The translations under genes were made by a program, and so were the position numbers. From assembly GCF_037975245.1 (NCBI RefSeq), contig NC_092580.1:5244501-5308500 (forward strand): 64,000 nucleotides of DNA. The letters are read 5' to 3'. The notes beneath the pieces were generated by a model, which did no database searches, had not been told where the DNA came from, and worked only from the letters and a program-made list of their open reading frames with translations. Positions 5,405 to 58,763 of this stretch are shown piece by piece. This DNA comes from Apostichopus japonicus. Its lineage: Eukaryota; Echinodermata; Holothuroidea; Aspidochirotida; Stichopodidae. Each line of letters opens with the position of its first letter. The stretch's first letter is position 1.

Positions 5405-8400
5405 TTATAACTCTTTCTTTGGGGCGTGCTTCGGTCTTAATTCGTTTATTCTATCGATGAAGTCTGTCTTCTCCGAGCAGGCCCGACAAGTCTCTCCCCA
5501 GTCGTTCAGGATCTTCTTCAAGTCCTTCACTTTGAGTTTCTTCAGATCTACAGAGTCCAAGTCAATTTGCTTTTCTGAATGACGAAAGAAAAGATTAAAG
5601 AATTAGTAGACAATGTTGCATAAAAATAATGGACTCATTCCTCACTCCAACATTGAGGAGAACTGCAGAACTGCAAGAGAAACTGTCCTTCAAAGCTGCC
5701 TATTAAACATTAAGAAAAGCCTGTGCATGAAAAGATTTGATATGAGTCAACTAGCATCCATATTTTTATTGAAAATAATCATATGCAATCCCTATCACAT
5801 TGGAACATCATACCAAAGAAAATGAAATGCCAAATCCTACATAACAAGCAGGGTGGGAATTTTACGGTACGCCGGTACGCTAGCATACTGGAATGAAAAT
5901 ATGGCTTACCAAAATAAGAAAATCAAATGGGCCTAGTACTACACACCCTTGTAATGAGCGTACCAAAATTCTGACCGTAAGTGACTGCATCGGACTGTAG
6001 TAGGCTTATCTGCAATCTGCTTCTAAGTTACGGAGGATTAATTTGTCGCGCAGCTAGCAAAAAGCACCAACGAACAGGCCGCACACAGCTGGCTGCTAGC
6101 TCAGCGATCGTGCCTGGACCGCCACATACCTACGACTAACTGTGTATGCATCGCAATTTATTCCAACTTCACACATGAACTACGCAATTGCCGACGGCAA
6201 TTGCGTAGTTCATACTGTACATGTGCTCAGAATTTTCCCAGGTATCCTGCCAAACAACTGTGCCCTCATCCCCTGTCTAACACCTGTTTGTTAACATTTT
6301 TGGCACGTTTCCAAGAAACGTTTCATGGAGTATTTCCCATGATACACGAGGCACAGTTGATACACGCAGCACAAGATATCAAGCTATGGCCATCTTTATG
6401 AAAGTAAACTAATGCTTAAAATTATTTCTATGTTCTTGTAGGAAACGTCAAGTTCGAAAAATACAATTAGTTGTGCTTCTGTAGTTACGTGAGATCCGTA
6501 ACAGACGAGGTGGTTAGGCTATTTGCTATACACTTAACTATGGTAGGACATTATTTTTTCCGTATTTTTGGAAATTCTAGAAAATACTTTCTTTCCCCCC
6601 GCTTAGCACCAGATGTGGTCTTACGGTTTATTCATAAATGGGTGTACTAGAGCCTTGTTTACATGACATTAGTTGCATGTAGCACGATATGCCAGTTTTG
6701 CGTGAACTTTTCGAAAGTGTTTTGCTGGATCTTTCGTAAAATTTGAAAGGACCGAACTTACTTTTCGTACACAATTGGTAATTTCTCTACTGATTTTCAG
6801 AGATTTTTTTACGATCTCCAGTCGATACATTTCCTTTGATCATGTATTTGAATAACTAATACCAAGTCGAGTATTTGACCCGGTATTGTCTGGTCGGAGA
6901 GTTCAACGTGATGGACAGGGATTGTAATTATTTCGATCGAACATGCATTGACTGGATTATCTGCGCCGCCGCTGTCGGCTCGATATAAAGTACACTTGTG
7001 CCGCGAATCAGGAAGTTTTCACAAAAGGATAACAGCGTTCAGGTCATTGTGCTGTGCTTACCGATTCATGAATTGTGCTTACCAACTGAGAAATCTTGGC
7101 TCATGTTGGTAAGCACATTTCATCAAAAAATGAAAAAATGCTTACCAACTTTTTTTGCCAAATTCCCACCCTGATAACAAGTCCAGTTTGTAACATGCTA
7201 CCCCTCTGTACTTTGTTACAACAGCTTTTATAGCTGACTTAGCTGGCAAGTTTTTCAAAATTTAAAATCAGTGCTAATGATTAACACTAGTATGAGGAAG
7301 GGTCTTGCATAACGAACTGACTCAAATAATTATTTCTCAGCTCTAATTTTCAATTCATGCAGATACAGTATCTCTAGGATTATCCTAGAGTGATAAGTTC
7401 CAATTCAGAGAAAGTACCCTGTAATATGAGAAAAATTGCCTGATATTTCGTAACCAATTTAGAAGCAGCTGCTCTACTCTTAATAAACCGGGAGGTCGTT
7501 GTATTCCTGTTTGCTTACATTTAATAGTATCGTGCCAGTTTGGACGTCTAGAAGAAGTCTCACTGTAAAGTACACTCACCATACTTAAGTTCACAAATCT
7601 GAGAATCCTTTTTCTGCAGCTTTTCGCACACTTTATCTGCTGGAGTGAAGTAGATTAGTGGCTTAGCGACATCTCCTAGAGTACCGGTAGCTGCATCTGC
7701 TGTTCCACCGATATAGTAACACTGAATGGGAGACAAAAGAATAGTAAGCCACAAACTTTAATTGAGTAACAGCAGAAGGTGTCAAAAACATATTGAAAAA
7801 ATTAATACAAACATGGCTTGAATGACAACTTAGTACAGTAACAAGCTAAAGAAATATTCAGGGAGCCTTACACTATCAAATGTGTAGCTAGTCCAAGATC
7901 AAGTTTGAAAAGGTTCATTCAGTTCAAAATACATTGATGTTCATCGATTATAAGTATATTCCACCATGTAGGAAACAATACACAGTCACTTTCTGATGAG
8001 GTAAATACTTTGATGTGGTATATTACTTTACTTACAAATCTATTGTCTTTGCTGTTAAGGGCTGTTTTACAGAACTTTCTAATTTTCTTCTCTACATCCC
8101 CTTGACTTTTCCTGTCTTCATCTGTGAGTGTTGCAGCGATTCTGTCCACCATTGAAATACAAACTAGATTGGAACGAAAAGGAAAATTGACAGTGTGAGT
8201 CTTACATGGGAAAATTAGTAATTATTATTATTATTGTTTTAATTTCTATTGATATTAAGATGATAAACTCTGGATATATTAAGACAGCAGAGCAGTAGAG
8301 AGTCATCCGCTGCTTGGTCCTTGGTAAGTTTGATCACAAACTATGTAGGTCATTTTATTGCATTACAGGTACACTGGATCTCCCGTTTGTAGTCCTGTAA

Positions 8401-9299
8401 ATGTATCACTTTCCAGAATGATGAATATATGCAATCACTTCAAAGGCTTGCAAATGATATGATAAAATCATAAAACATGACTTGAAATCTTCTGTATTTG
8501 ACTATAACTATTGTCAGCTACTGTACATTAAGTTGTAACATGTACATCTCTTAGTCAGCAGCAGTATCCTATTGTATGTGAATATGAAATGTCACTGAAT
8601 GATAAATGAGTTGATCATTTCATGAGGCAAAGTTTGGAATCAGTTGAAGGGTTACTGTTATAGAAAGACTACATATCTCAGTGAAGCATAGAGAAACAAA
8701 ATGAAAATAATGCTGATAACATTAGCTGAGATGAGAAACAAAAATACAAAATGACATATAAATATTTCAACCAGTATTTACTGTCGAGAATAAGTCATGG
8801 ATTTCCCTGGCTTCTTGTTGTACTCAAATTTCAAAAGATCATTAAATTTTATTTCAAGGTGATGTTGAGTCATTAGATGTAGCCTATCAATGATATTCCT
8901 GACTCAGTTGAGCTAGTACTGTAGTATCTCTGACTCAATTCATGACTGCTACAACATAAGTTGTGATCACATATCAATAGGCCAGATGTCAAATTCAATT
9001 ATTCCCTACAATTAATACAAAAATTGTAGGGCTAACTTTGGTCACTGCTGTATGAAAGTAACTATAGTTAGACCACCGCTATCACGAAGTGTGTGATGGT
9101 TTCGATCATAAAGCTTATATTTTTGATTGGTTACAATATTCAGGCCAAGTTACTAAGGCCTACAATCCTTCAAGTTCAAGTCTGTGTTTCAAAGAATCAG
9201 CTACTTACCATCGCATTCTCCTTCCTTTATTTTGGCATCGACTACTGCCAAGAGACAGAAGACACAAACGAGTAAAGCTGAAGGTAGCCAAACATCCAT
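5405..9299 (-). CDS. MANF: MANF/CDNF-family secreted ER protein, complete, 4 coding exons
   Basis: Coding exons on the minus strand are 9209-9299, 8036-8163, 7580-7721 and 5405-5574. They total 531 bp, or 176 aa plus stop, and every junction is GT-AG and in phase. Residues 1-22 form a hydrophobic signal peptide ending VVDA. The mature part has the eight cysteines of the family (29, 32, 62, 74, 105, 116, 150, 153), spaced within one residue of human MANF, and the familiar CYYIGG segment at 74-79. The C-terminal SAP-like domain follows with a C-R-A-C redox-type motif at 150-153. The protein ends KKEL, a KDEL-like ER retention signal. The family resides in the ER lumen, is induced by ER stress, interacts with BiP and can be secreted as a cytoprotective factor. 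The start is the ATG directly before the signal peptide. The gene is probably co-orthologous to vertebrate MANF and CDNF. Intron 3 contains a hAT-like insertion. Confidence 0.95.
5849..7173. mobile_element. Non-autonomous hAT-like element in MANF intron 3
   Basis: The element starts cagggtgggaattt and ends with its exact inverted copy aaattcccaccctg (14-bp terminal inverted repeats). It is bounded by identical 8-bp target duplications, ATAACAAG, at 5841-5848 and 7174-7181. Both features are hallmarks of hAT transposons. Near the right end the short motif GCTTACC recurs in both orientations, as hAT subterminal repeats often do. No transposase frame is present. It contains a 39-bp palindrome and a ~610-bp segment shared, inverted, with the element at 39687-41443. 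Confidence 0.9.
6175..6213. repeat. Perfect 39-bp palindrome (19-bp arms, 1-nt centre)
   Basis: The left arm ATGAACTACGCAATTGCCG at 6175-6193 is followed by one A and then the exact inverse complement at 6195-6213. It lies inside the hAT-like element and directly abuts the segment shared with the element near 40.3-41 kb, so it may mark a rearrangement junction. As single-stranded DNA or RNA it would form an extremely tight hairpin. Confidence 0.95.
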
Positions 9300-9774
9300 G
9301 ATTACAACAAACGCGAATAGTAGTACTATGATTAGAAAAAGGAGGAAATGTATCTAGGCTAGTGTCAGTTCCACGAAATCGTAGCAACGGTTCAAAGAAA
9401 GCCGACGGATGCGGTGAATGTATCGATAGTTCTTGATCGAGGGAAAATGAAAAGCGAACTTTGACAAAATAGTGCTAAATCTGTCAAACTAAGATTTAAG
9501 TTGGATGGTCTGTTGATGCCAGGATTTATTTCTCTCGAAACGTTCAACACTGCCTTGGTCTAATGCTTGTAACGCTATATTTAAATGAGTGTTCGTGATT
9601 CACACGTGAATTTACACTACTAGCTTGACAGACTATAGAAGTTTGTATGTTTACGTGTCTCTTTCGTCGTTCGAGTTGGCGTAATTTGATTGGCGGATAC
9701 CCGGCATGACGAAGAGCCGAAAGAAAGTTACGCAAGAACCAAAGAAGACCAAAAGTGAGGGCACACTTTTCAAA
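9300..9774. promoter_or_regulatory. Divergent intergenic promoter region of MANF and HSPA14
   Basis: Only 475 bp separate the start codons of the minus-strand MANF gene and the plus-strand HSPA14 gene, so both 5' untranslated regions and promoters must lie here unless there are upstream non-coding exons. No TATA box is obvious at either end. Visible candidate elements are an inverted CCAAT box at 9687-9696 and a CACGTG E-box at 9603-9608. Head-to-head spacing this short is typical of bidirectional promoters. Confidence 0.65.
9687..9696 (-). promoter_or_regulatory. Inverted CCAAT box (NF-Y type)
   Basis: The plus strand reads tgattggcgg, so the minus strand reads CCGCCAATCA, a good NF-Y consensus, 79 bp upstream of the HSPA14 ATG. 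On the minus strand, CCAAT is followed by nine bases and then CCAAC. This resembles the ER-stress element CCAAT-N9-CCACG but with two mismatches in the ATF6 half, so ER-stress control of MANF through it is only a suggestion. Confidence 0.4.
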
Positions 9775-12700
9775 ATGGCAGCCTCCATTGGAATTCATGT
9801 TGGTGGGACTTCCTCATGTTTGGCGTTGGAAAAGGTATTAGCCGCATTCTTAACTTAATACATAAATGTCTCGTAATGTTTTGCAGTTTGAATCGAACAA
9901 ATTTTCTAAAACAATAGTAGACATGTCTGATGCATTACGAATGTTAGGCCTTGCCATAACGTTAGGCCTATTGTATAATGCCTATAGTAACACCTATTCC
10001 TAAGTTCTTCACGTTAGGTTAGCCCAACCTGGCCCAACCATGGCAATATTAATTTAATACTGCCTAATAGTAACATACTGACATTAATGTAACTATTTTA
10101 CTGTTGTTGGAAGTGTTACAAGGCTTGGCTATATTATTATCAATTTGTGAGAACTAGCCTAGTTACAACTTTGTTATACTTAAGTTACAGGAGTGTATCA
10201 GGCTGGTGTTTCTACTAGTAATTAGGCCTATAGAATACCCCACCACGCGAAAACACCACATCAAATCGAGAAGATTCCCCTGGAGTGGCTACACAGGCTC
10301 CATTGAGAAGAAGTCTTTTATTACGCGGAGTTAATGTTAAGCCTAAAGCATTCCCCATGGCATGAGTGGCTTCCCAGGCTCAGTCGGATTCTCCATCAAA
10401 AACCCTTGCAGTGTTATGATACGACCCATCGTTGACCTGGGCAATCGTTTTCATTTCTGATGAATATTTAAAATTTAATCATAATCTTATCTTATTCATT
10501 CTCAGGATGGGAAGATTGATGTTGTGGCAAATGATCTTGGAGACAGAACAACACCAGCGGTGGTTTCATTTTCTGATCGTGAGAAGGTAAGACAAAAAAT
10601 AACATGGCCTGGTGAAAAGTTTGATCAATTTTGAGCAAAATTACATAACAGCTCAATTATCAATTGTTATCAACTTATGTCATGGCAGATGCAAACAGAC
10701 AATGTTGGCAACTTGGCACCTGAATTTTGGTCATACAGGTTGAGAATGAACTCAGTTATATATGACTTATATGATAAATTAACTTAAAATATTATGGTTT
10801 TTTTTTCCTTCATGTAAGCGAGAGAGGATCTGACATTCATTTTCCCTCACTGTGTACTTTAAATATCCAGAATTTTCAAGTACTTGCATATACCAATTTT
10901 GTCTTTTGAAAGGGATCTCATTGTTTCTCAAGAGTTTCCAAGCTTTGTTTTATAGTTTAGGAAAAAGGTATCTCTTGCAGATTCATTGAAGGTATGGATG
11001 TGGACTACTTTTTAATGACCTCTTCGAATGTGCTCTTTGACTTTGTTTTCTAGATCGTTGGACTCGCTGCCAAGCAGGGTCAGTTTCGTAATCCTTCCAA
11101 GACCATAACCGGAGCTACAAACCTGCTGGGTAAAAAGTATGTCGCCTTCTTCAAAGGGATGCCTAACAGTTGCTCCCTTGGTTCCATTATTTTTCCTCCC
11201 AACACCACACAATTCAATCAACACAATTCATATATTGTCACGTTTATATTGTATTAGCTTTCCAGCAGGTCTCTTGTATTTCAATGAGTTCTGATACTGT
11301 ACTGCTGGTCAAACATATGAACAATATTGAGCTACTGTACTAGCAAGATTCCAAAACTAATGTTATGCAGTTATGTGTTGTGATTTAGAGAACATGATGG
11401 CCACAGTCAAGGAGTCAATATCAGACCTATGTTTCTCACATCCATACATACAGTAAGTATTAAGCTTCGATAGTCCTGTAGGTCTATGAAAAGAATCCTG
11501 TTCCTTACATAACTATGAGGAAGTTTTGTGTCAATTAGTAGTGAAGTCCTTTTTCCTTGAATTTTATTCTAGATGGATTTTCACTCACGCAACTGTTAAA
11601 AATCTACTTTAGACATTAATTAGACAGTTGATGTGTGTTTCTTTCCCCATTTTGGTATTTAAGATTTAATGCTTCTCATCTTTCCCCTCCTGCAATAGAT
11701 TCTCTGATCCATCCATTGAAGAAGAGAAGAACAGGAGTCAAGTAGCCATTGTGGAGAAAAATGGTGCTCCCGTCTACCAAATAGAGTGCAACGAGAGATC
11801 CCAGTTAGTCACGCCAGAGGAAGTTATATCAATGATTATGTCAAAACTCAAAGGTACATGAAAAAAATACTGTTTTCATTGAAATGTTTATTAAAACTAT
11901 AAATATTAGATAAACTTTGTAAATGTTTTAAACGGTGCATAAAGGTATCCTTCAGATTAAATTGATTGGTTCTAGGCTAGCATATAAGTTAAAATATTCA
12001 TTGAATCTTTAAGGCAATGAAAAGTCTGAGACTTAAAGAGGCCATGACACGAAAAATCCAACTCATCGAGAGTAACTTCCTCTGAATCTATGAGAAAATC
12101 TATGTTCAAAACTATCCTCAACACCTTGAAAACCTCAAGGACTAATTAGTAATTAACGTTTTAATATTCGCATTCGAAAATAGATATCTGAGAATGCGAT
12201 TTCACAACAAGACAATGATGACGTCATGTTAGGAACACACGTGCAAAGCCCAGGCATGTATCGGATGCGCGACGATCATACCGTTCCAAATACAGTACAC
12301 GCACATTTACACTGATAGAACAACCACTGTATTACGCTATATCGTTAGTAATTTCAAGTTTTTTTTACAACTGTTGTAAACTATCCGAGAGAAATGCCGG
12401 TCCGTTGTGTTGTTGGGGGCTGCATAAATATCATTACACATGCAATTAGCCTTCATCCATGGCTGAAGGACGAAAAAAACACGGCGATTATAACCAAGTT
12501 AGTGCACAACACCAGCGCCGATTTCACTGGGCCTAGCCAGTATGCAGCTCCGAATGAAGCGAACACTTCACGGAAGCATACTACGATCCCTCCTTTTTGT
12601 TATGAAATAAAACAAATGGACTTTAACGGTTCGACATAAAAGAGTCATTCTTCTGTCAAGTAATCCACAAAAAACTACTCTGAAGACCAGATCGGGGAAC

Positions 12701-15700
12701 AGGAAACCTCCAATGGGGCAAGTGGCGATCCTTAGGAGGTAGCGCGCTGAGCACTAGTAGTACTATAGTAATAGCGTTACTACACTGAAGTCGCAATAGA
12801 CGAAGAGATTTTACTGTATCATCTAAATTAACACCCCCTTCATTGCTCTATTGTATACTAATAAGCTATGAGGTTAGCTTCAGAAGCGATGGGTTACATC
12901 TTCTTGTGAACAAATCTCAGTGCCCCAATTTATTTCTGGAATATGCTGGATCAGTTAGTTATAGCAATAATTTCTTATTCCTATTCCAGGAAAACCATTT
13001 TTTATGTTGTGGAGGGAGTGGGGGTAATGGGGATGGGTCAAAATACTAGGTAGGTAAAAAGATTTTATTCCAAAGGGTGTTTAATTAAATCTCAAAGCGA
13101 TTTATTTTAAAGTCACAGAGCCAAACATTCACACAACATAGTTCAAGTGTTAAATCATTGAACAAAATTTATTCAATATCAGTTCTAGACAGTCATTCTG
13201 GACAATCTGAACTAACATTAACAACAATCATTGTATTATATGACATAAAAGTAAAACTGTACTTTCCATAAACATTATCATTCTTAAATTACACTAATGT
13301 AATTTGTGACATCAAAGGAGGTTAAAAGAAAACAACTTACATGAATTTTTTGGCTTTAAGCCTACAAAGCAGTTGCATGTCCATCGCTATCAATCGTTGT
13401 TGTGACAAATTAATTAGAATAATCCAGAAGCAAATACAATAAAGGGTTATTTAAACCAAGAAACACTGCACGAAGTAACTCACATGCAAAAATATTACAC
13501 AAGCACGACGACACGTACAACACTGATGGGCAATGTGAAACACAGCATCACACGCATTAAAACAATCGAAGACCATTAACAGGGTGTACTGCTGAGTTTT
13601 TGAAGAAAGACTACAAAACAAACCAACTGCTGCTGAAGAAACAAAGTCTAAACATTCAAGAGTTCTGCTGCCTCCATTGGTCTTTATTATGACTTTTCTG
13701 TCAAATATCATTGGTGATATGGATATTTTGGCTTCCAGATTAAAGGTACAAATCAAACGTCTGGGAGGTAAATGCCCCTAAAAAGGTCAATGTCCGTTCC
13801 CTTATGCACATATTATATGACATCACGGTCACGCCAATGCTTGTGTCCAAATGCTTCAAAACATGCCTTTTCTTTCATTGTTGATGTTGGGTCTGGAAAA
13901 TAACCTTTTCATCCTGAATTAAAAGTCTTGAATTTCAATATATCAACACTGAGGGAACCCTGACGGATTGATAATCCAACACAATCGTAGTTTAGAAAAG
14001 GTGTTTCTGGAGGAATTTCTCAACCAAGGCTTCCTATACAATGAGTTTTCTCCTGGCAACTTGAATCCAGTGTAATGACCATTGGCTGGAAAATCACTTC
14101 TGATCCTTTGGACTGCACATGATGGTAGCACAACCCTGACGTGTCTTGCTAGGAACCCCAAGTATCATTGAACCTGTTGACCGTAGGCTATGTATCTGTA
14201 CTGCCTGGGAAAAAATTTATGAAAGTTTAAAATGTATTAATGTTGGCCATGATGTCCACAATAACAAGCAGGCATACAATGTACAGTTATGATTACATTT
14301 GTTGTGATTTTACACCTTCTGTGTATCATGAAACATTCTTTTGTTTCAGAAAATTGATTTGCAAAACTCCAGGCCAAAGTACTAGCCAAGTAATAATGAG
14401 TATGAAATAACACATATGCCTACCTAGCATGGCTGCATAATGCAACTTACATCCCCGAGCCAAACTTTCAGTATGCAACCAACCCTACTAGTACTACACA
14501 CTCTACATATGGGTTGTAAGTTACCGTAACACAACGCACAATACGGTTTAGGGTGTTCCGCGAATTCCAACAACACATGCACAAAATGGACTGGATTTTG
14601 TTTTTAAATGCTTCGTTAATAAATTCTTACCACGTTGTATGTTCCTTGCAATGGTTTCGAACGGATGTCTTCTTCGATATGTTGTGGAGCTTCAATTTCG
14701 GCTCATTTAACAGGCTCGAACTGATACGGTTCTAACACCTCCGCTCCACCCTCAACGTTCGGTTCAATATTGGAATGATCATCGCCTTCACTCTCTGCTT
14801 CGAATATGAGAAAGGGCACTCTAATTATAGCCCAATTTCACTGCCTAGTGAAGAACCATTATCACTTTGAACTTCGGTTGCCGCAATTGGTTCTGAATCC
14901 GCCATTTCACAGGAAATTTTGATTTGATATCGCACTTGTGATCGGTGTTTTGTTTAGTAACTACTAGTGGTATGTGTACTTGTCTACTGTGTACGTGAAT
15001 GGTATGTTCGGAGGATCGTAAAGCAGCGACAACAAATGTGTTCAAAACGTGACGTCACATGACGTCATGCGAATCGGAAAATTTTCGAGTAAACAAAGTT
15101 TCAAACGCCGAAAAGGGTAAATTCATTCTCAATTTTCGACTTGAAAAATCAAGTTTTAAACTGGCAGATTGGTTGATACATGTTCTAGAGAACATTCTTT
15201 GATGGATCCCAAAAATATAGGACTTTGAAATTTTCGTGTCATGGCCACTTTAAGGCACTTTCGCATCCTTTTCCATCAAAATTAGTTGTTAGCACCACAC
15301 AGGGGCAACATATCAAACTATCTATTTTTTCCTCTTTTTTTTTTCTGATATTCCTCATTTCAAATTAATATTTGACTTTGATGAAATTACTTTTCTCATA
15401 CTTGAACAACATAAAATAGCAACCATTCACACAGTTGAATAATTTCCAGATGTCAATTTAAAAGGCAAACAAAGCAGCTGTAAGTAACACTGGTAAGTCC
15501 TTGCACATAAAGTTGGTTGTGTTTGTCAAAATCATCAAATCAAATCAAATCAAATCAAAATGATGTGTATGTAAATTTATCTTTGCCCTTCAGAGACCGC
15601 TGAGCATCAAGGTGGATGCACAGTCAAAGAGTTGGTCCTTACATTACCCGTGGATGAAGCAACTACAGATTATGAAACTTCTCTCAGGTTTGGCTTTAAA

Positions 15701-35601: not shown

Positions 35602-35605
35602 TTAA

Positions 35606-42769: not shown

Positions 42770-42771
42770 AA

Positions 42772-42802
<31 letters not shown>

Positions 42803-42806
42803 AAAA
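42770..42806. repeat. (AAAT)n microsatellite
   Basis: About eight uninterrupted AAAT/ATAA tetranucleotide units followed by an A-run. Confidence 0.95.
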
Positions 42807-44628
42807 CAGGTGTAGGTGGATGCAGTTAACATGACTTGCATTCAACTATTCCTGCTGTATATGATTGCATTGTGATATACTGTACAGTAGGGGCAGCACC
42901 AAAATTATGCTATAGCCATCTCTTTATGTTTTCTATGTTGATTTAACCAACACTAAATTATGCTAAACATTCCTCGAATTTTAATTTTTATATCATTATT
43001 ATTATTATGATTCTTATGATAAATAATTTTATTTTAAACCTGAAAGTGCTACATTAGAAATTGCTTACCTCTCCTGTTTTGTGAGTATGTAAAGCTCTAT
43101 TGTTTAATTGTTGCCTATTTCGCAAAGCACAGTCTAAATCAGTCTATGTAATTTTGATCTCTTCTCGTTATACCTATGTTTGCTTTATACTTATTACTAA
43201 TTATGCACATCTACTGTACTGTAAGTAGCACAGTACCTAAAGTACTCTAGTCTATAAAATTCTTGACAATAAAATTCTGTGCATTATTAACGTTAGCCTA
43301 CCTCTGAACATTGCATGTTGTGCAACCTGCTGTATATATCTACTAACTGTAAAATTATTGTTTACTGATATTTTCAAACTACTGTAAAAAAACTCAATGT
43401 ATGTTAGATTAATTAAATACACTCTGTGTACATATTGTTGTTTTTCATGCATCATGCTGGTAAATATTCCTCGAAAATGGCTACTGTAATAACGAGGGTA
43501 CTCCTGTGTTGACATGGCGTGTTGGTGAATGGGTACTTGGTTTACCATCGAAAAGGGGTTTTCCCCACTGGATATTAGGTTATACCCATTTTGTGTCTAT
43601 ATTCAAACCTATTGTAAATGATGTCATATTGGGGGTGTTGTCTTTTTGGTAGGGACAGTACCTTTTGGTACCTGAGTAGTAACTGATGTCCATTCACAAA
43701 TAGCTTTGTTGGGGGTTTCCCCTGAAAACTCCCTCTGGTGCCTTGGTGGTGTCAGCTTTTGTGAACTTTTTCTCGGACACTGTGATTTGAGCATTCAGGT
43801 GAAAACAACAGCTTTGGTGTTTTAAGGTCAATCTGGATCTCATTCAAGAATAACATTTTATAACTATGTCAATCATAGACATGGATAGTCAACTTTCCAC
43901 TTTAAAAACAATGCAGAAATCATTTTATTGGTAATTGTACAAATCGTTGAAAAGTCTCTGGGTGTCAAAATGTTTGGAATCGAGTGAAATCGTTAAACTG
44001 TTTTGCTCATTATGGTTTATTTGGTTGTTAAACTTGTAAAAGTATAGTAAAATGCCCTATTATAGTTTCACTATTTTGCCAACTGATTGTGAGTACTATG
44101 TCACCAGTGGTGCCAACAAAATTACAGGGCAACTGCTCTTCTGTTTAATACATTGCACTGCTGTTATACATAACATTTACTAATAGTACAATCAGTACTC
44201 TGTGAGTATTATCATTGGCAGAATATTCCAATGTTGTCCTCCTTTTCTTCCCAAGGAAAGGTCAGGAGTTGGTGAGTCCTGTAGAGTTGTTAGTGATAAC
44301 AGCCTTGATGTAATCAAACTTTTTAAGTTTCACGAAAATTGGTGAAAGTATTCCACCAGATGAATTGTTTCTGGCAATTTGTTGCAATAAATTGCAGTAC
44401 AATTTGCTTAGACTAGTGTGGAATTCACTACCTGGGATGAATTCAGTCCATTTAGATGAGAATTTCTACTTATTTTGTTCCAGTATTAGCTACTGTACTC
44501 AGAAGCTGTGAATAATCTTCTGTATGTTTAACCATGCTATAAGTTTAGCTGACACCTGTACTAATAATGCTTTTTTTCCCCTTAAATTTCTTGTCTAAAT
44601 TAGAACAAACAAATCTGGTCAATGGTAT

Positions 44629-44647
44629 GTGTGTGTGTGTGTGTGTG
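44629..44647. repeat. (GT)n microsatellite
   Basis: About nine GT dinucleotides followed by ggttgtgtg. Confidence 0.92.
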
Positions 44648-47452: not shown

Positions 47453-50400
47453 ATGGAGAATGAATTCTCCTCTGACGAAGATGCCGGTGGCTTACAGAGC
47501 GACCACTCGGAGAGCGAGCCACCGTCCTCGGAGAATGAAGATGGGGAGGAGGAGGAGTACATGTCTGAACAAGAGGAGAACGGGGAAGAGGTTGAGGCTG
47601 ACAAAGATGAAGAGTTAGAGAAAGAGAAAGAGAAAGGGGAAGACACTGGTGGAGAAGGGGGAGCTGAGGGTGATGCAGAGGGCGAAGAAGGGGAAAAAGA
47701 ATTACGAGAGGAGGGTAACGAGAAGGTGAAAAAGAAAACCCTAAAGAGGAAGAAGAGCAAAGTGAAAGGTGACTCGGCTCAGCCAAAGACGAAGAAGAAG
47801 CGCAAAGGGAAAGAGCCGCTCTCTAAGAAGAAGAGAAGACCCAGTAAACCGAAGCACATGAGGAGGGATATTAAGTAAGTACTCACTGTACTATTGACTA
47901 AGTTAAGGTACTACTTTATTTGATTTGAATGAAAGAGAATGGTTGAGAATTAAAGAAAACAGGACAATGAAATAAAGATGATTTCCCATTGAGTCTAAGG
48001 CAGCAAATGCCTAATTCCAGTCAAATGTAACATGATCGGTTTTACTCGACTCATTCAAAATTTTAACCAGTAGACGGAAGGCACCCGTTCCCAGAGAATG
48101 TTCTGATACCAATTTGAACTTTAGAAACGAAAGAGAGTTTTTTAGAAGAAAATGTGATTTCCCAGTCTGATTAATGTGATCAGATGCTCATTATCTGAAA
48201 TCAGAGCAAGTTAACATCAAACTACAGAAGTGCTTTTAGAATTCATGCTTTAAACTGAAAAACCTCTCATTGCATCTAAATGCCAAAAGTAATTCTACCT
48301 AAATGCTTAAAAACCAGAATCCTAAGATCTGTAACCCAACTTGCCTAAAGGTGTACAAAATGTTAAGTGCTCTTTTGGTTAATGGCTGGAAGAAGATGTT
48401 CACTGTGTGTCCATTCCTTTGTGGTATACTGTACATGTATATATATAATGCACAGCGAGTATGTTGGTTAGTGCTGTAGCATCAATACGGTACATACATT
48501 TATCTCTCCTATCGAAGCCTTTAGTCGTACATTGCAGCTTTTTGAGTCAGAGGCTCGAGAACATTCAGAACCTAGTAGGAGATTGGGCTAAAAATTTTAG
48601 TAAGCTGAAAATAAGTGTGTAAAAGTAAGTTAGCCTGACGTTTCGATCCTAGCAGGATCTTCTTCAAAGGCTAAATAACTCAAATTTTTGGAAGATGTTG
48701 TTACAGAAATGAGATGGTACAAAGTTGTGAATTGTCTCAGACAAAGTTTGGATTGTAAGTTTTCTAACTTGAAGCCTTCACACAAAGTTGAGTGACCAGG
48801 AGAATAATGTCATTCCCAAGACCATTTTTTTGTTTGGCTGTGTAATTTGTAGCAATAATATAGCCTTACCAGCACATGACAATTGAAAACATCAGCCCTA
48901 CAGGTTGTTGTAATATAGAGAGAAAGCTAGCTCGCTAATTCATGCGAGTATTGCTGACTTCTTGCTAAAATGTTTGGAATGAAACTGTAAGCCTTTCTGG
49001 AGGCCTTGGACTCAATGTTGAGGCATTTCTGCTATTTCTGAACAACATACTGTCCATCTTATGATAAGTATGTCTAAATGACATGCATACTTGATGGAAT
49101 GTGGTAAAAAAAAATCCAGCCAACTGATTTATGGAAATTTTACTGTACTACTGTAGGCACGTGCGCCAATATCGTCATGTTGTTGTTACACTACAGGATG
49201 CATGGTATTGAATTCGTTGTGCATATACAGTAGGAACCCATCATACTCTACGATAAATGAAACAAAATACCCAAACAGGAATGAGTCTAAAGTACATCTC
49301 TGTGGTACTACAGTCTGTCTGTGGGTTATTAGTGTACATTTAGTGCCTTCAATGGAATACTGATTGCATTTGTTAACTTCATGCAGTATTCATAATGTGG
49401 CATGCTACACAACAGCGTGACTATTACTTCATAATAAGTACTGTATGTGAATAACATTGTTATTCTGAAATATATGTACAGTACTGTATGAGAGCAAGTT
49501 TCACAAGACTGAAGGCCAGCATCTAGAACAGAATATAGATTTTACATAACAGTTTTATGTATTAGATATGACCGTAATAAAACAATTTTTGACATTTTCT
49601 CTCAAGAACATTCTTATTAAAGATAATAAGGACTCAATGACTCAAATTACAATTGTGTGATCATGCTAGTATTGGTAGTAATGTTGCTAAGGTGTAACCC
49701 AATCTCTCCTATAAATACATATCAAACAGTGCTCTTTCAAAAATGTGCTTCTACCACCTTCAACTCACCCCACCCTACCTCTCCCCACCTTCCTCTTCTT
49801 CCCCACCTTCCTCTCCCCACTTTCCTCTCCCTGTCAATGATACTGAAACAGATTTGAGATATATACATACATCCCTCTGGAAGAATCATTTTGAAGGATG
49901 GGATGCGGAAGATCAGTTTGGAGGATGGGATGTGGGAGGAGTAGGTGGAATGTGCTTTGAGGAGCTAAACATGAGGGCGATCTTAAACATTGGCATCCTA
50001 ATTATGCGAGTAATTGGACAACAGAAAAATAACCGAGTCATTATGAATAATAGAAAAGAGAGGATCATTATCCAAAGGTCACAGGTTTGAGTTACCGGTA
50101 CTGTACATTCAAGACATACTGTAACAGTTCTTCGCTCTTCTCCTCATTAACACCCTGCAAAACATTTTAGGTTATATCTGTTGACAATATTAGTAAACGG
50201 TTAAAGGAAAAGTGACCGGGAATTTTAGACAGTGAAAAAAAGCAAGAAAGTTTATACGGATTGAATGTGATTCGAAACAGTGATGTCTGGATAACTGGTT
50301 ATTACATTTCACATTGTCATTGCTAACGTTCTTGGGAAAGTTAGAGTTAAGTTTGCCTTGTGCAGTACATTTCATTGCAGTAGTGTGGTTTGTAGCCAAT

Positions 50401-53400
50401 GGAGGATGCCGTGGCAGCTCTAGTGCAGTAGTTAATCTACCAATTCATTCATTAACATTGATATGACTTTACTTTAGGAGTGGTCCCTTGTAAGCCAAAG
50501 TAATTGAGTTTGAAGTTAAAAGTGACTATAGGGCATGAATGTGCAATGATTTGGTCTTAAATCTAGACAAATAGAAGATTGTGAAACTTTAAGAAGCCTC
50601 ACCCCCTCCCCCCCACTCAAAAGAAAAGCCCACTTCTAATGGCAATATCTGTTTTTTATAAGGAATCTGATGAAAGAGACAGAACTGGATGATCAAACTC
50701 TCGCTGCCCAGAGGGAAGAGGAAGAGAGGAAGAAAAGACTGGAAGAGCAGAGAGCACAGAACGTGTCCCCGCCTCCTCCACGTAAGTCTTCACTCATGAA
50801 ATCTGAAAACAGCTTTATCCAGTGATCAGGGAGCAGAAAAGGTTTAATCTAACACTCTTTGACTAACCTGGTTCAGTATGCACACATGTTACTTAGAAGC
50901 TTTATCCAGTCATCAAGGAGTAGAATAGGTTTAATCTAACATTCTTTGACAAAGCTGGTTTCGGTATGCATAGATGTAAAGTTTGACTCGATTGATCTGT
51001 TACGAATGAGTGTGAAAAGTGTGACATTTATCCTTATTGAAGCTAGTTTGCATACATAAATGTGAGATTGGTTGTACCCTCTCCCTGTTGCGTGAGTCAA
51101 TGTTACGTAAATGTATCTCTGTGTAACGGTTAATGCAGTAATCTCCATTGTTTGATGAGTAGGTTATATCCTTAACAGGTCTGTAGTTCTACGAGTCCTG
51201 TTAAACATAAAGAAACGCATAAGCAGGTTTGGCTATGCATTGTAGCATGACCAAATTTTGTTACAATTCTCACGATTGTGTGAGTCTGCTGGGAACTGTA
51301 TATAAACATCAGGACACCTCATGTAACCAATTGTTCTAAGAACAATGTAAGCAAGAATGTAAGCTTAAATTGTGAAATTTATGCTGTGCCTGGTATATTT
51401 GGGGAATTTTGGGGAATGCCATCAGAATATTGCTAGCTGTTTTGGAATTTTGTGATATCATTTATGTGGGAAAATGCTTAAAATAAGTCATTTGCTCATG
51501 TGGCATTTAATCGTTACCCGGTTTGAGCCGTGCAAGAAAAGAGGGATTTTCCCTGGCAACAATTAAAAGCTGAGTTGCTTTTAGTTAAGTGTACTATGGT
51601 TGTAATCATATTTGTCAGCCTTACATCATTAGCATCCCCTGTGACCTCAATAACAAATATGGTGACATTTAGAATGTGTATTGAATCGTTGTACCAGGGA
51701 ATCTTTATAATGTAGATGGCAACTGTGCTACTACTATTGCATCTAAGGTAAACTTCATGAATTGTGTTATTGTAATGCCTCATCGCTTGAATTCCTAGAA
51801 AGTGATTGTAAATACTACATGGTATGTAGATAACAATAACGGTGATACCATTATATGACAGTTAAAGTGTTTTTATTCCAAGAAACCAAATATCTACTTT
51901 ATAATCTTTATATAGAAGAACAAGGAAACACTCATAAAACAGCACTGTTAACTGAAGTACCCAGTACTTTCTCTTAACATTGAAGAAAACATACAAATTG
52001 GACAGATATTTTCTTGCATGAAATTTGTGGGCAAGACTATTTTTTGTAGTTGCAGGAAAGGGGACATAATATATTACTACTGCCTTTATATGGTAACACG
52101 CCTTGACTTGCATATAGCCCAGTAAAGACCATGTGGGATTTTAAAATGATATTTAACAAACCACAGTAAAAGTGTCTAGTCATGTACTCTGTAGAACTGA
52201 CAAGTTCTCTGTGTTTGTTGGCCGTCTATAACCAGCTGGTATTTTAGAATATATAAAACAAAAGATGCAGCCCTCCTTTTTTAACTTTCTCATATTCCCT
52301 TTAATTTCCTGTGTTTTTGTTTTCCTCCCAGTATTAACACAGTTACTTGAAACTAATACCAGTGATCTGGTAGAGGAGCACAGACTCAGGAACGTCGAAG
52401 CCAACGAGTACATCGTCCTGGAGAGCAGCAGCGGTGATGAGGAGAAGAAACAGACAACAGTAGAAACTAAGAAAAGCAAACCAGGTCAGAATAGTCAGCA
52501 ACATTTAGCACCGTCACTCTTATGATGTGTCTAAGGGCTGTAAGAATGCTACCGACTAGCGGTACAGAGTCGAAACCAAATATCGATCTTCAATGCCTCC
52601 CTTTCAATGGTCAAGTTGCGGATATATTTATCCGCAAACAAAGTTCAGATAAAACGCCAGTTTCTTTAGAGACGGTCACATGAATTAATTAACGGTTGTG
52701 CCCCGAACCTTTGATGATTAAGTAGAATTGATAATGATGTGAACTAGCCCGTTGTATTTATAAATTGTGACCTGGAAAGTTATCCTTGATAAAATGATAA
52801 TATTGAAGTTTATGTTGACCATGTGAAATGGCCGACTGGAAGTAACAGATTCGTTTGAAGATACTTTGTGTAGCTGAGTGTGGAGTCCTAAATACTGTCA
52901 TTATTTTTCTTCTTAATGTCTATCCTTTTCACACTCTTATTGACAAAGTAAAGCAAACTTCATCAAATATATTACAAACAATATTCCTTTCCATTTCTGC
53001 TGCATATATGATGTCCCTCTTCTATTACATGGAAGGGAAGTTAGCTGGTTTTGTACATGTATCATATGGCAGCATGTTTTACTGACTTCAAGAATAGTCA
53101 AGTCTAGGTGGTCCTCTCACTTTCATTTTTGTTCGAATTTTGTTCACAACCAAAATTCTTTTGTTTTTTTTTCAATCTTCATTATCATCCCGATATGTTC
53201 TCTCACTCAGTCACGGAATTGATTGAAATTTTGAGTTCCGATGAAGACGTGAAAGTCTTGAGCGAAAGTGAGAGGGACGAACAGAGCGACGCAGAGTTTG
53301 CGGTCCCCATCCACGGCCACGAAGAAGAGAGCGGCACGCACACGGACGACACAATCAACCAACCGGACGAAGAAGGCAGGGTACTGGTCAATGTCAGTCA

Positions 53401-56400
53401 TCCGCTCGACGAACAAGATCTTTACCTCCCGCAGCATCTCGCATGTAAAGTGAAATCTCACCAGGTCAGAGTCGTAACGATTACCGTAATCATTCTCGTG
53501 GATTATGTTTTGCAAACGATCCACATCGTTCAAAAAAGGACTGTCTTTGTATCGTTGTTTAACCTGGCATTTATATTCTCACCGAACAATCGAAATAGTC
53601 AGACACAATTTGGTCGTCCCTCGATCGAAACGAAGACCTCCACGTGGCTACGAATATTTGGCTTTTCGGAGTTGACAAGTTACCTTCTTTTGTGACCCAA
53701 TACAGCAAAGATCATGTCCCACAAAAATCAATGGATGAGATGGTACCAAACACAGTATCCTTGCTTTTACTTAAAATAGAAGCTGGGGCGAGAAAATGTG
53801 GAATGTCACTGACTTTGAAGGGTTAACTTTGTTAGATTCCCACATCCTGTGTATTGTTTCTGATGAATGAGGTAAAAAAAGAAATAACTAAAGCACTTTG
53901 AGGACATTTGATCAGATCTGTGGGGTTCAAAGAACTGTGGTAATGGTTGAAGGATTTAGTCACAATATGCGTATTCTCCATAGAAGAAAAGGTTCAAATC
54001 TTATGTATATGTTTAAATTCAAGTTTAATATTAAAAACATTCATATTGGCACCTTCACATTTTTCTTGCCATGTCTTTCTATGATTTTTCTTTCTTTTCT
54101 GTCATTTATTATTTATTGTGTGTTAAACATTACAGTACCATAAACGATGACAAGGTTTTATCACGCACAGTGAAACTTGCATGGTCATAGATATATTGCA
54201 ACGTACTGTAATAAACTACACGCGTCTAGACAGTGTGCAAGCTCTTCGCAGAAACCATAAAATGATTGGAAAAGGAACTATTTGTTTACACAATTAAAAG
54301 GAAAAGTCAACGCAGGTGTTAAATGGGAACAGGAAGTCACTGATGGGTGGTCACATGTAGTGATATGAAGTAATCAAGTTGGAAGTTGCCTCTTGTACAG
54401 AAAGAGGAAATGGGGCAAATATCTGAAATTTTTGCATGAATTGTGTGTGTGAAAAATCACAAGGAAATGCCAGATCATGCCCCAATAAAATGCCATCTTG
54501 AAATGTTGATCAAACAGGGCTTATAATTTACCGTATTATATTCTTTGTTATGTGTAAGTGAGAATCGGTTTTGTGGGCACAAGTACATTGTGAATCTGTA
54601 AGGCATTCTACATATCACAATTAAAAAAACCTTCAATTAGATAGCAAGATGGCTGAACGGAAGTGTTTGAGCAGAGGAAAATAAATTATATAAACTCTGA
54701 ATATTTTTTTTTACATTTTCCGACTACAAATTCCAACATAGTTCTTCCTGTTTGAAACAACGTTATTCCACATACCGGGAGAGTCAATACTTTAATATTT
54801 ACGCACATTCTTGAATGTTGTGTACATGGTCAGTTGAACATGACTCTCATATTAAAAGAATAATACACAAGTTGTAAGGTGTTGCTTAATAATTAAAATA
54901 AATTAAAATAAATATTTCTTCAATCTCTGTTTTTTTTTTTCCCCCTCCTCTTTCAGATTGGAGGAATTCGTTTCTTGTATGACAACCTGGTGGAGAGCAT
55001 CAACAGGTTTACGAACAGTGCTGGGTTCGGTTGTATTCTAGCTCACAGTATGGGGCTAGGAAAGACTTTACAGGTAGGCATATATACCTTCAGCTTCATC
55101 GGTTTACACGGTCAACTAATAAAATGACACATTAACCATAAACGTATGAGACTTCGTCATGATGGAACCCAGTCATGTGACTGCTGTAAACTGCAAGACT
55201 TTGCAACCAGTACTCCAATAACACTGTCCATCTTGTAGGCCTTCAGCACATTCCCAACTAATAGGCTTACAACAGTTCACCAACTGGGTAGGCCTATAAC
55301 AGTTCCCCAACTGGGTAGGCCTTCAACACTGTCCATTTGTAGGACTTCAACACTGACAATCCTGTAGGCCTTCAACACTTTCCCACATAGTGGGCGTACA
55401 ACACATTCCTAACAAGTTATGAGGTAATTTATTGACAGTTTGCATCAGTTTTGTTTAGTAAAAATGCTGGATAATTTTTGCACTACTATATATTAATTTC
55501 AAAAAATGAAACTGTTCTGAGGAGGAACTAGTTAAAGCGTAGAGGTGACATGTTCTTGATTTTCTTGCTCTTGTCAGAAAGATTATGATGCTGCTGGAAG
55601 ATTTACCTTCTATAAATACTGTCAGAAATTGCTCTGAGATATGCAAATAATATGTCTAAAGATTGACCGTTCTCAGAAATACTGCCTTATCTGAACTGAG
55701 ATCAAGCAGCATGTCCAATGTCGCCAAGGAAACTATCGAGATTGCTAAGTAATTTATTCCAGGGGTTGCAAAAAAGGTCACATTTTTCCAGCGAAATTTC
55801 GCAATAGGTTTATTCACATTGGAGATGAGTTTAATATAGACTGTATTTAGAATGTAGGAATATCATGTCCAAGGTGATTCAGCAATGAGTAAGGGATTTG
55901 GAGAGCTAGGGTCCGAGGGGCATGGAACTAGTGACAGTTAAAGTGACAGTAAAACAAGTGACAGTAACTAGTGACAGTAAACAAAGCCTTAGATGGTTAC
56001 AGAAATCATGTCTTATTCACTGCAGGATGGTGTAAATTAGTTCGTCTTTATTAGTTTTATAAGCTTTATTAGTTTTATTAATTAACTCTATTTTCGTTGT
56101 CTCCTGTAGGTGATTTGTTTTACCGACATTTTTCTGAGATACACGACTGCTCGGTCAGTTCTCATCATCGTGCCAATAAATACTTTACAAAACTGGATTG
56201 CCGAGTTTGACATGTGGTTACCCCGTGAGGGGGACCCCTCAACGGGGAGGCAAGCCAGGCAGTTCAACCTGTACGTCCTGAACGATACCCACAAGACAAC
56301 TGTGGCCAGGGCAAAGGTCATATGTGAGTCATCAACCTTCTTTTGCTTTTCTTTGGTTAGCAACATTTTTGTGTAAAGTTGACTTTGATAACACTTTGCA

Positions 56401-58763
56401 TCCAGTGATGAAAGCCTGAACTGAGGCATATTGCTTGTGGGTGCCTCATCAAAAACAGTCTTTCTTTTTTCCATTCTTGTAAAGAAGTATGAAACTTGAG
56501 TGATGTCTATACACTGAAATGAAATTTTTACAAGTTAGTATTGAAGAAATTCTATTGGACACATCTGTTTGGGAGTACTTCACAGAAAGTGCTCAGGTGG
56601 AGTATGTAGAAAGACAACTTAGGGTAAAAGTAAGTAATGTCACAAATTTTGCTAGAAATGCTTAAAAAATGGTCACATGTAATCAACTTTGGAGGTGGTG
56701 CATTGAAGGGCTGGCAGATTGTAGTGGAATTAGATCATCAATTAAGTTTGCGATAGAAATTAAATATCTTTAAAAAAAAAATGTAGGTAGAGAAACATGA
56801 AGCAAACCTTACAGTAAAACCCATTACAGATAAAAGTATCAATCATGTCCTATTCGGTATGTTGGATTTTATCAATCAAGAAAGCATTTTAAAGAGAGAT
56901 AATTGTTAAACCATGATAGTGAGAACATCAAAACTGACATTTAGTAACATGAGAAAGGTATTAAATCACAAAGAGTAGATTAATTGTTATTTATAAAAAT
57001 GTGCTGCTTAAATTATTATGTTTTTTAGGCGACTGGTACCAAAATGGCGGTGTGATGTTAATGGGTTATGAGATTTACAGGTTACTATGTAACCGTAGGT
57101 TTACAGGAAAACCCAAACGGAGGAAAAAGAAGGGACCAGCCGGCCCGGAGGTCATCGATCTGGAGGAAGAGGAGAAACTGGAAAAAGAATTAGAGAGTAA
57201 GTGGCTTTGTTGTGTATTTCTATTAATGGCTGTAGTTAGGGTTAGAGTGGGGGAACCACAATGTTCTGGGTATAGACACAGCAAGGTAGGTCTTCTACAG
57301 GAATTCTAAGCACTGTGTCAAAAGTAGGACACTGAGGGATCTGCAGCCAGGCTGTATAGGATGTTAATCTTTTGTACTGTGCTGTCTCACACAATAGGCA
57401 CTACAGTATTACACAATAGGCAATGGTGCTCTGCTGCAGTATATCTCTATTGTTTGCTGTATCTATGCAGCCTTGCTGCAGGGCAGTTAACAGCAGCTGC
57501 AGCTTTTCTGGTTAACACAGTGCCTTAGTGAATGTTTATAGTAAAGGGTTGGATTAGGACTGTGGAACAACAGTACTCTTTGTACAGACAGCATGATATC
57601 CTAAACGCTACATCAGACACTTGGGAATGCCGTTAAGGGTGGGATTAGAACCCTGACGAGGAGGTTGCTGTGGGAACTGAGAGTAAGATGTCTCTACTAC
57701 ATACCTGTGTGAATTTCATTAGACAGCCCTAGGGTTAGGGCTGAGAGAACATTGCAGGTGTAGCACACTCGGGCAGGGTAAGAAACTGTAAGGATATGCT
57801 TTGAGAATGAATTGCTAGACGAAATACATAACTGAGTTAGAGAGATATTATGTAAATGTCTATGATGAATGACAAAATCTATGCCTTATCCCACAGATAT
57901 CAGGTATGCAATATGTAACCCCGGACCTGACCTGGTAGTCTGTGATGAGGGGCACAGAATAAAGAACAGTCTGGCTGGAATCTCAAAGGCACTCAAAAAC
58001 ATCAAAACAAGGTTAGTAGACTGGAGCAAAAACACTAATCTGTACTTTGTAAGCTGTAAAACAACGTGGGGAAAGCATTGTTGGTTGTTTTTGAGTGTTT
58101 TACATCATCCGCATAAGTAATATTTAGATATTTTTTGTTGTTCTTGTAAACATGTTACGCTTCATGCACCAATGAATTATTTGAACCTTTTTTGGTTTGA
58201 CTTTTCTTAGGCCGGAAAGTGACATATGCAGTCCAATTGGCTTGTGTGTGGGTGTGTACGTGTGGTATCTGAGTTGAGCTTGTAGCAATGATGTCTTAAT
58301 ATAGCCAACATCAGCTGCTCTCAGATGTTACACGTGGCTTACCTATTATGAGTAGAAGAATCCATTTTTTTGGGGGGGGGTGAATGAAGATCTAAGGCCA
58401 TTTGGTAAGGTTTAAGTTTTCTTATATTACAAGTTACCACTGGGAGATAGTCACACTGGTTTCCTTATTTTAGTCAGTTTTGTTATTAAGAAGAAACTTA
58501 GTTGGTTAGTGTATGGTGATGAGGAACCAGAAAAAAAGGTTTTCATCTGGGTAAAAATATATTTTTCATTTTTTTTTTACCAACTTTATTTCTCGACCAG
58601 ACGGAGAGTTGTTCTGACCGGCTATCCCCTCCAAAATAACCTGATGGAGTATTGGTGCATGGTGGACTTTGTCCGGCCGAACTATCTGGGTACTAAACAC
58701 GAATTTTCCAACCTCTTTGAGAGACCTATCCAAAATGGGCAGTGTACTGACAGCACACCAGCG
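47453..58763 (+). CDS. RAD54L2: RAD54L2/ARIP4, SNF2-family ATPase, 5' part (runs off the window)
   Basis: Coding exons: 47453-47874, 50663-50781, 52332-52484, 53211-53464, 54957-55073, 56110-56323, 57029-57196, 57897-58011, 58601-58763. They give 1725 bp, 575 codons, all GT-AG and in phase. Residues 1-140 are acidic, then lysine-rich, ending with the [10 protein letters not shown] block seen in ARIP4. A charged coil follows at about 145-170, then SUMO-interaction-like stretches ([21 protein letters not shown] at 235-243; EVIDLEEEE). The ATPase core shows Walker A MGLGKT (348-353), motif Ia VPINTLQNW (376-384), DEGH box (499-502) and motif [11 protein letters not shown] (526-533). The helicase C half is not in the window, so the next exon lies beyond 64000. 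The human protein is a nuclear DNA-dependent ATPase that binds androgen receptor and DYRK1A and is regulated by SUMO. Related ATRX is less likely, because the YLGT-x-x-EFSN and NGQCTDSTP segments match ARIP4. Confidence 0.94.
47875..50662 (+). other. RAD54L2 intron after the first coding exon
   Basis: The intron starts GTAAGT and ends ttttttataag. It holds the nested hairpin motif at 48630-48674 and a pyrimidine-rich strand near 49760-49840, where cttcctc and ccccacctt repeat. No other feature is recognised. Confidence 0.7.
48630..48674. repeat. Nested inverted-repeat motif of a dispersed repeat
   Basis: Outer arms TTAGCC (48630-48635) and GGCTAA (48669-48674) enclose inner arms GATCCT (48645-48650) and AGGATC (48654-48659). 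The phrase gcctgacgtttcgatcct recurs in degraded form near 45099. It looks like a conserved piece of a dispersed element. Confidence 0.6.
53465..54956 (+). other. RAD54L2 intron 4, nothing recognised
   Basis: The intron is flanked by CAG|GTCAGA and a long pyrimidine tract ending TTTCAG. The sequence is plain AT-rich intronic DNA with no repeat or gene that I can name. Confidence 0.7.
55236..55405. repeat. Degenerate ~30-bp tandem repeat in RAD54L2 intron 5
   Basis: About six copies of a unit like gtaggccttcaacac followed by variable ccccaactg lie in tandem between coding exons 5 and 6. Copies differ at several positions. Confidence 0.8.

What the first reader, a model, noticed from the sequence alone, without database searches (positions are those of the whole stretch)
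5405..58763. One locus joins MANF/CDNF, HSPA14 and RAD54L2: a likely pre-duplication linkage
The sequence shows MANF (minus) head-to-head with HSPA14 (plus), followed by RAD54L2 (plus). From memory of human maps, CDNF and HSPA14 are head-to-head on 10p13, and MANF and RAD54L2 are close neighbours on 3p21. A single invertebrate gene co-orthologous to MANF and CDNF, flanked by both partners, is what is expected if the ancestral locus was duplicated in early vertebrates and the copies lost complementary neighbours. It dates the MANF/CDNF split to that duplication and implies a very old divergent promoter.
Basis: partly seen in the sequence, partly recalled or inferred. Interest (0 to 1): 0.85.

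Follow-up and report, generated by a model that had tools for sequence, protein, structure and literature searches.

The report
Pre-duplication MANF–HSPA14–RAD54L2 neighbourhood in echinoderm
A sea-cucumber-like genome keeps side by side three genes that in vertebrates ended up on two different chromosomes, which supports the view that the vertebrate growth-factor pair MANF and CDNF arose when a whole ancestral chromosome was copied.

Summary
MANF (minus) and HSPA14 (plus) sit head to head, 475 bp between start codons; RAD54L2 (plus) is the next gene found and runs past the window. The mitochondrial contig uses the echinoderm code; assembly size fits the sea cucumber Apostichopus japonicus. 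The MANF N-domain gives one match genome-wide. The strongest new evidence is chromosome-wide. I tried 22 gene families from human chromosome 3, 10p or their X/1q paralogous blocks: 20 place on the window's contig C20 (5.3% of the genome), two of these by identity rather than top score; NMT lies elsewhere, Artemis was not located. Of 7 control genes, 0 place there. C20 thus looks like the unduplicated ancestor of that paralogon, making MANF and CDNF whole-genome-duplication products. A six-row tree joins vertebrate MANF with CDNF, the window outside (99/98). The gap is CpG-rich, fitting a shared promoter. Limits: no other invertebrate genome was available. HSPA14 beside the MANF-type gene is well supported as ancestral; RAD54L2's closeness is weaker, since other human 3p21 neighbours (RBM15, DCAF1) lie 12–14 Mb away here. 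Verdict: supported, the shared chromosome more surely than the tight trio; a new case of a known kind.

The parts
9209..9299 (-). MANF exon 1: start codon 9299, signal-peptide-like N-terminus [22 protein letters not shown]
   Evidence: spliced alignment and reading of the sequence
8036..8163 (-). MANF exon 2
   Evidence: spliced alignment; ARMET_N part also seen in the raw frame, below cut-off
7580..7721 (-). MANF exon 3 (ARMET_N core, the one genome-wide ARMET_N match)
5405..5574 (-). MANF exon 4 (ARMET_C), ends ...APKKEL stop
9300..9774 (.). 475-bp gap between the two divergent start codons: CpG-rich candidate shared promoter
   Evidence: CpG observed/expected 1.40 for 9301-9773; 0 of 114 equal tiles in window 10-63.5 kb reach it, 2 of 302 tiles over 144 kb do
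9775..24520 (+). HSPA14 (atypical Hsp70), 14 modelled exons; alternative in-frame start 9706
24600..47300 (.). Stretch between HSPA14 and RAD54L2 in which no gene was detected; holds a tandem array at 33.8-34.8 kb
   Evidence: six-frame Pfam scan, tandem repeats
47453..64000 (+). RAD54L2 5' part (10 modelled segments, the last in window 58601-58763); gene runs on to about position 74739 beyond the window

Best explanation
The window shows an unduplicated descendant of the deuterostome locus from which the vertebrate MANF and CDNF loci both come. One ancestral chromosome carried a single MANF-type gene head to head with HSPA14, and RAD54L2 close by. In early vertebrates that chromosome was copied by whole-genome duplication. 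The copy now on human 10p13 kept the MANF-type gene (as CDNF) and HSPA14; the copy now on 3p21 kept the MANF-type gene (as MANF) and RAD54L2; the other copies (Xp11, 1q32; recalled) lost the set. The head-to-head pair is served by one CpG-rich divergent promoter. Shown here: gene identities, order, one MANF match, shared chromosome with the paralogon families, tree split, CpG-rich gap. Inferred: duplication by 2R, complementary loss, tight linkage of all three before 2R, promoter activity.
For: Gene models and domains. One ARMET_N match in 671.6 Mb. On C20: RBM15, UBA1, SUV39H, DCAF1, WDR82, ALAS, SEC61A (SUV39H checked); TKT, GATA1/2/3-type, CaV1-type, PFKFB, TEX264, MITF; PRPF18, NPRL2, IMPDH and, by identity, GNAI; TIMM17, PRKCD/Q-type and, by identity, CAMK1. 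That is 20 of 22 families tried; C20 is 5.3% of the genome, binomial about 6e-24, an overstatement because I chose the families. Controls EEF2, HPRT, GAPDH, PCNA, AHCY, TYMS, GPI: best place on C20 for 0 of 7. A published GATA1/2/3 paralogon (PMC2857956, section read) names 13 shared families: 6 of the 13 (PFKFB, CACNA1, SEC61A, TIMM17, PRKC, CAMK1) plus GATA itself were tried and all 7 are on C20, CAMK1 by identity only. Tree 99/98 and p-AU 0.008. Vertebrate maps in print. CpG 1.40 against a tile median of 0.43.
Against: NMT, a 10p13 neighbour (Nmt2 in the mouse list), is on C18; Artemis (DCLRE1C) was not located, the hit being Apollo-like. RBM15 and DCAF1, human MANF neighbours, lie at C20:17.2 and 19.4 Mb, 12-14 Mb off, so order is heavily shuffled and RAD54L2's closeness could be a chance return. 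For CAMK1 the top bit score is on C3 and for GNAI on C19; only the highest identities are on C20. Query segments, most human map positions and fly/worm MANF were recalled. Other stretches are as CpG-rich. An AHCY-like second gene of the control set is also on C20. No second invertebrate genome was compared.
Confidence: 0.85

Rival explanations
1. Only the chromosome-level linkage is ancestral. The three genes were on one ancestral chromosome but not clustered; their tight grouping here, RAD54L2's in particular, arose by later shuffling in the echinoderm line.
For: RBM15, DCAF1, TEX264, WDR82 and ALAS, 3p21 genes, are spread from 13 to 31 Mb on C20, so gene order is largely lost; the chance that RAD54L2 or another of about six 3p21.2 neighbours falls within two genes of MANF is near 2% (my estimate).
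Against: HSPA14 is listed beside a MANF-type gene in mouse and in sole too; a head-to-head coincidence is near 0.001 (estimate). Another tight remnant survives on C20: matched exons of GATA and SEC61A are 13 kb apart.
Confidence: 0.25
2. MANF and CDNF separated before the chordates (local duplication) and the echinoderm lost one of them.
For: Only one six-row tree with recalled outgroups was built; CDNF has a long branch (0.65) that could mislead it.
Against: Vertebrate MANF + CDNF group at 99/98 and the alternative with window + MANF is rejected at p-AU 0.008; the window is nearer to MANF (59%) than to CDNF (51%), as a faster CDNF would give (relative-rate test 19 against 8 sites, p 0.052); print records a single gene in invertebrates.
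Confidence: 0.04
3. The head-to-head MANF/HSPA14 pair arose twice: once in the echinoderm line, once beside CDNF in vertebrates.
For: The orientation of the human pair is recalled; the printed lists that I saw give gene names in order only.
Against: Same two families and same chromosome of origin; about 0.0005 by chance given one chromosome.
Confidence: 0.05

Closest known systems
Vertebrate GATA1/2/3 paralogon, PMC2857956 (chromosome numbers X/3/10/1 are recalled)
   Same: GATA and the PFKFB, CACNA1, SEC61A, TIMM17, PRKC and CAMK1 families sit with MANF, HSPA14 and RAD54L2 on C20
   Different: The 13 families in that paper's Figure 6 legend do not include MANF/CDNF; this adds them as a further pair and gives an echinoderm outgroup state
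Chordate linkage groups and 2R model, PMC7269912 (passages seen)
   Same: One unduplicated invertebrate chromosome corresponds to several vertebrate segments
   Different: That work is chromosome-wide; here one small neighbourhood with a head-to-head pair is described. The matching linkage-group letter was not determined
Vertebrate CDNF-HSPA14 locus (mouse chr2, sole BAC 38N10) and MANF-RBM15B-DCAF1-RAD54L2 locus (human 3p21.2)
   Same: Each holds part of the partners seen here
   Different: Two loci instead of one; RBM15 and DCAF1 are distant in this genome

Membership tests
MANF/CDNF (ARMET) family | ARMET_N (saposin-like) and ARMET_C (SAP) domains | tested here: met
   1.7e-35 and 2.6e-24, both over cut-off
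MANF/CDNF (ARMET) family | Eight cysteines with CXXC pairs, signal peptide, KDEL-like tail | tested here: met
   read from the model: CDVC, KFC, FCYY, VCEKL, QICEL, CRAC; hydrophobic N-terminus; KKEL end. That these define the family is recalled; no signal-peptide program was run
MANF/CDNF (ARMET) family | Co-orthology to both MANF and CDNF | tested here: met
   MANF + CDNF clade 99/98 on six rows, two of them recalled
HSPA14 | HSP70 fold closest to HSPA14, shorter C-terminus | tested here: inconclusive
   HSP70 3e-90, profile 2-496 of 599; 44% to recalled human HSPA14 over 511 aa; not compared with other Hsp70s and no Hsp70 tree built
RAD54L2 (ARIP4) | SNF2 helicase closer to RAD54L2 than to ATRX | tested here: met
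   55% over 869 aa against 37% over 672 aa, references recalled; Pfam SNF2 and Helicase_C
Ohnologue pair (2R whole-genome duplication) | Paralogues lie in a paralogon whose members share one outgroup chromosome | tested here: met
   20 of 22 families on C20, controls 0 of 7
Ohnologue pair (2R whole-genome duplication) | Duplication timed to the vertebrate stem with cyclostome and amphioxus sampling | not testable with these tools
   no other animal genome is held
Bidirectional promoter | Head-to-head starts under 1 kb apart | tested here: met
   475 bp between start codons; transcription starts unknown
Bidirectional promoter | Transcription in both directions from the gap | not testable with these tools
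   no RNA data

The most novel reading that the evidence does not exclude
The MANF-HSPA14 promoter has been held together by selection since before echinoderms and chordates parted, perhaps to co-ordinate an ER-resident folding factor with the ribosome-linked Hsp70. In vertebrates the ancestral promoter and partner went with CDNF, the apparently faster-changing copy, while MANF, the copy nearer the ancestral protein, lost the partner and runs on a newer promoter: regulation and protein character were inherited by different daughters. The split would date to the second round of duplication, because the GATA2-side (3p) and GATA3-side (10p) blocks part at that round.
Probability: 0.3. Interest if true: 0.6.

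Novelty: new member of a known kind. Interest (0 to 1): 0.45.

Why it matters
MANF and CDNF are studied as possible treatments for Parkinson's disease, and how their roles differ is open (PMC10405524, passages). Placing them as products of a chromosome duplication, with known partners, says which regulatory setting is ancestral (the one beside HSPA14, kept by CDNF) and gives a clear prediction for lampreys: if the split fell in the second duplication round, and that round came after lampreys branched off, they should lack a true CDNF orthologue. It also shows how one invertebrate locus can reunite vertebrate neighbours now on two chromosomes.

Tried and rejected
First spliced-alignment run had a trace-back error and gave nonsense exons; corrected. 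Artemis: the C20:13.74 Mb hit is a one-exon gene that I recognise as Apollo-like (L016), so Artemis counts as not located. SUV39H: the 12.73 Mb hit looks SETMAR-like (L014); the gene with a chromodomain-like stretch plus pre-SET is at 21.30 Mb (L015) (names recalled). Promoter motifs: no ERSE, ERSE-II, UPRE, CRE, HSE, ETS, NRF1 or TATA pattern in 9301-9773, one CCAAT and two ACGTG sites (three strand-wise hits); no shuffle was run and no claim is made. CpG: 0 of 114 tiles in the window, but 2 of 302 tiles over 144 kb and four of the best separate sliding windows are higher, so it is a supporting point only. Relative rates: CDNF changed at 19 sites, MANF at 8 (window as outgroup, p 0.052; recalled worm the same; recalled fly 15 against 9, p 0.31): suggestive, not shown. 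Codon-usage scan for genes between HSPA14 and RAD54L2: true exons score as low as the background there, so it was replaced by the six-frame Pfam scan (controls 64, 65). Rfam: nothing at or above any gathering score in the window. Literature: in this library no paper holds MANF, CDNF and HSPA14 together. HSPA14 + MANF gave 8 papers, one opened (PMC7915175), seven seen in the listing only. In (20 of 25 listed; 15 of 495; 15 of 163; 2 of 2; 7 of 7; 5 of 5; 12 of 78) no title or abstract start concerned the evolution of this locus; that does not show that it is not in print.
Full report
Where the window is from. The window lies at C20:5244501-5308500 of a 671.6-Mb, 35-contig genome; C20 is 35.49 Mb. 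Contig C35 (16,099 bp) is mitochondrial. Its COX1 reads as a normal protein with table 9 (ATA = Ile, AAA = Asn). The order cox1-nd4L-cox2-atp8-atp6-cox3-nd3-nd4-nd5-nd6(-)-cob with a long tRNA cluster before nd1 is the echinoid/holothuroid pattern as I recall it (tRNAs by ARAGORN, protein genes named by eye). Assembly size and scaffold number fit Apostichopus japonicus (671.6 Mb, 34 scaffolds, a mitochondrion would make 35; PMC10344927, passages), though the base totals are not identical. So it is an echinoderm, probably that sea cucumber.

The genes. MANF has four exons on the minus strand (start codon 9299, stop 5405). HSPA14 has 14 modelled exons on the plus strand (start codon 9775). RAD54L2 starts near 47453 and continues to about 74739, beyond the window. 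Pfam confirms ARMET_N/ARMET_C, HSP70 and SNF2/Helicase_C. RAD54L2 is nearer to recalled human RAD54L2 (55%) than to recalled ATRX (37%). Between HSPA14 and RAD54L2 a six-frame Pfam scan finds no family over its cut-off; the same scan, used as a control, finds HSPA14 in two of three frames and MANF in two of three. A gene without a known domain could still be there. The ARMET_N family gave one match in the genome, so MANF appears single-copy; only its third exon matched, so small or diverged exons could escape that search.

The chromosome test. I asked where in this genome the neighbours and paralogon partners of human MANF (3p21) and CDNF (10p13) lie, using recalled human segments. Of 22 families 20 place on C20, NMT is on C18 and Artemis was not located. 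On C20 are RBM15, UBA1, SUV39H, DCAF1, WDR82, ALAS, SEC61A, TKT, GATA1/2/3, CaV1, PFKFB, TEX264, MITF, PRPF18, NPRL2, GNAI, IMPDH, TIMM17, PRKCD/Q and CAMK1. Three need care. For CAMK1 the top bit score is on C3 (47% identity) and for GNAI on C19 (36%); the C20 exons have the highest identities (58-75% and 59-74%). For SUV39H one of two C20 hits looks SETMAR-like. Of the first-look candidates the searches scored 17 of 90, 34 of 49, 40 of 47 and 57 of 352. Seven control genes from other human regions, EEF2, HPRT, GAPDH, PCNA, AHCY, TYMS and GPI, have their best place on C13, C18, C11, C6, C3, C7 and C3; an AHCY-like second gene is on C20 (29 of 53 candidates scored). With C20 holding 5.3% of the bases, 20 of 22 has a binomial chance near 6e-24. 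I chose the families with the paralogon in mind, so the number overstates an unbiased test. A published list helps: a paper on the GATA1/2/3 paralogon names 13 shared families (PMC2857956, section read); 6 of the 13 plus GATA itself were tried and all 7 are on C20, CAMK1 by identity only.

Vertebrate side. Human chr3:50.34-51.89 Mb lists MANF, RBM15B, DCAF1, RAD54L2 and TEX264 among 21 genes (PMC6591479, passage); a second paper lists MANF, DCAF1, RBM15B, RAD54L2 and TEX264 at one association locus (PMC7483417, passage). Mouse chr2 lists Cdnf, Hspa14, Suv39h2, Dclre1c, Meig1, Olah, Acbd7, Rpp38, Nmt2 (PMC5774710, passage). A human 10:13.9 Mb variant is linked to PRPF18, FRMD4A, CDNF, HSPA14 and SUV39H2 (PMC7698967, passage). 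Sole BAC 38N10 lists cdnf and hspa14 (PMC6579814, passage; called manf in PMC7915175, passage). The head-to-head orientation of human CDNF and HSPA14, and RBM15B and DCAF1 lying between MANF and RAD54L2, are recalled.

The tree. With human and mouse MANF and human CDNF from PDB sequences, the window, and recalled fly and worm MANF, vertebrate MANF and CDNF form one side with 99/98 support. Rooted on the protostomes the echinoderm gene is outside the MANF/CDNF pair. Holding the window with vertebrate MANF apart from CDNF is rejected, p-AU 0.008. This is a six-row tree and should be broadened. A review states that CDNF is a vertebrate-specific paralogue and that invertebrates have one gene (PMC10405524, passages).

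How tight was the ancestral group? On C20, RBM15 is at 17.2 Mb and DCAF1 at 19.4 Mb, while MANF is at 5.25 Mb. Gene order is thus mostly shuffled and the trio is a local remnant. The HSPA14 pairing, listed again in mouse and fish, is safest. RAD54L2 within two genes of MANF has about a 0.4% chance for that one gene, perhaps 2% allowing for any of some six neighbours (my estimate). Another tight remnant is GATA and SEC61A, matched exons 13 kb apart.

The promoter. The gap between start codons (9301-9773 measured) has CpG observed/expected 1.40 against a tile median of 0.43; none of 114 equal tiles between 10 and 63.5 kb reaches it, 2 of 302 do over 144 kb. That fits an unmethylated shared promoter. 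None of the stress motifs tried was found. Co-regulation is an inference.

Dating. The GATA paper derives the GATA2 and GATA3 blocks from one first-round product, split at the second round. If MANF is in the GATA2-side block (3p) and CDNF in the GATA3-side block (10p), their split falls at the second round. This is my inference from that scheme.

Verdict. Observation confirmed; interpretation supported, with the exact three-gene cluster less certain than the shared ancestral chromosome. A new instance of a known kind: interest 0.45.

Noticed in passing
C20:9863941-9872469 and C20:9885827-9890279: Matched exons of a GATA1/2/3-type gene and SEC61A are 13 kb apart, another tight pair from the same vertebrate paralogon
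   Followed up: no
C20:30.83 and 31.03 Mb: ALAS and WDR82, recalled as close neighbours in human 3p21.2, are 0.2 Mb apart here
   Followed up: no
window -2742 to -364 (C20, upstream of the window, in L010): 793-aa open frame on the plus strand, tail to tail with MANF, no Pfam match at E 0.1
   Followed up: partly
upstream flank, window -36715 to -36455 (L013): Open frame with a weak CENP-P match, E 7e-5, below the curated cut-off
   Followed up: no
downstream flank, window positions 95821-99604 (L009): SH2-like and kinase exons resembling FES/FER downstream of RAD54L2 (kinase; SH2 and subfamily by eye)
   Followed up: no
window 33804-34793: Tandem array with 28-bp and 179-bp periods between HSPA14 and RAD54L2
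   Followed up: no
window 9706-9774: In-frame upstream ATG that would add a basic 23-aa extension to HSPA14 (sequence)
   Followed up: no
G000:C29:14745-31219: Further COX1-like pieces on contig C29, perhaps extra mitochondrial copies or rearranged mitochondrial DNA
   Followed up: no
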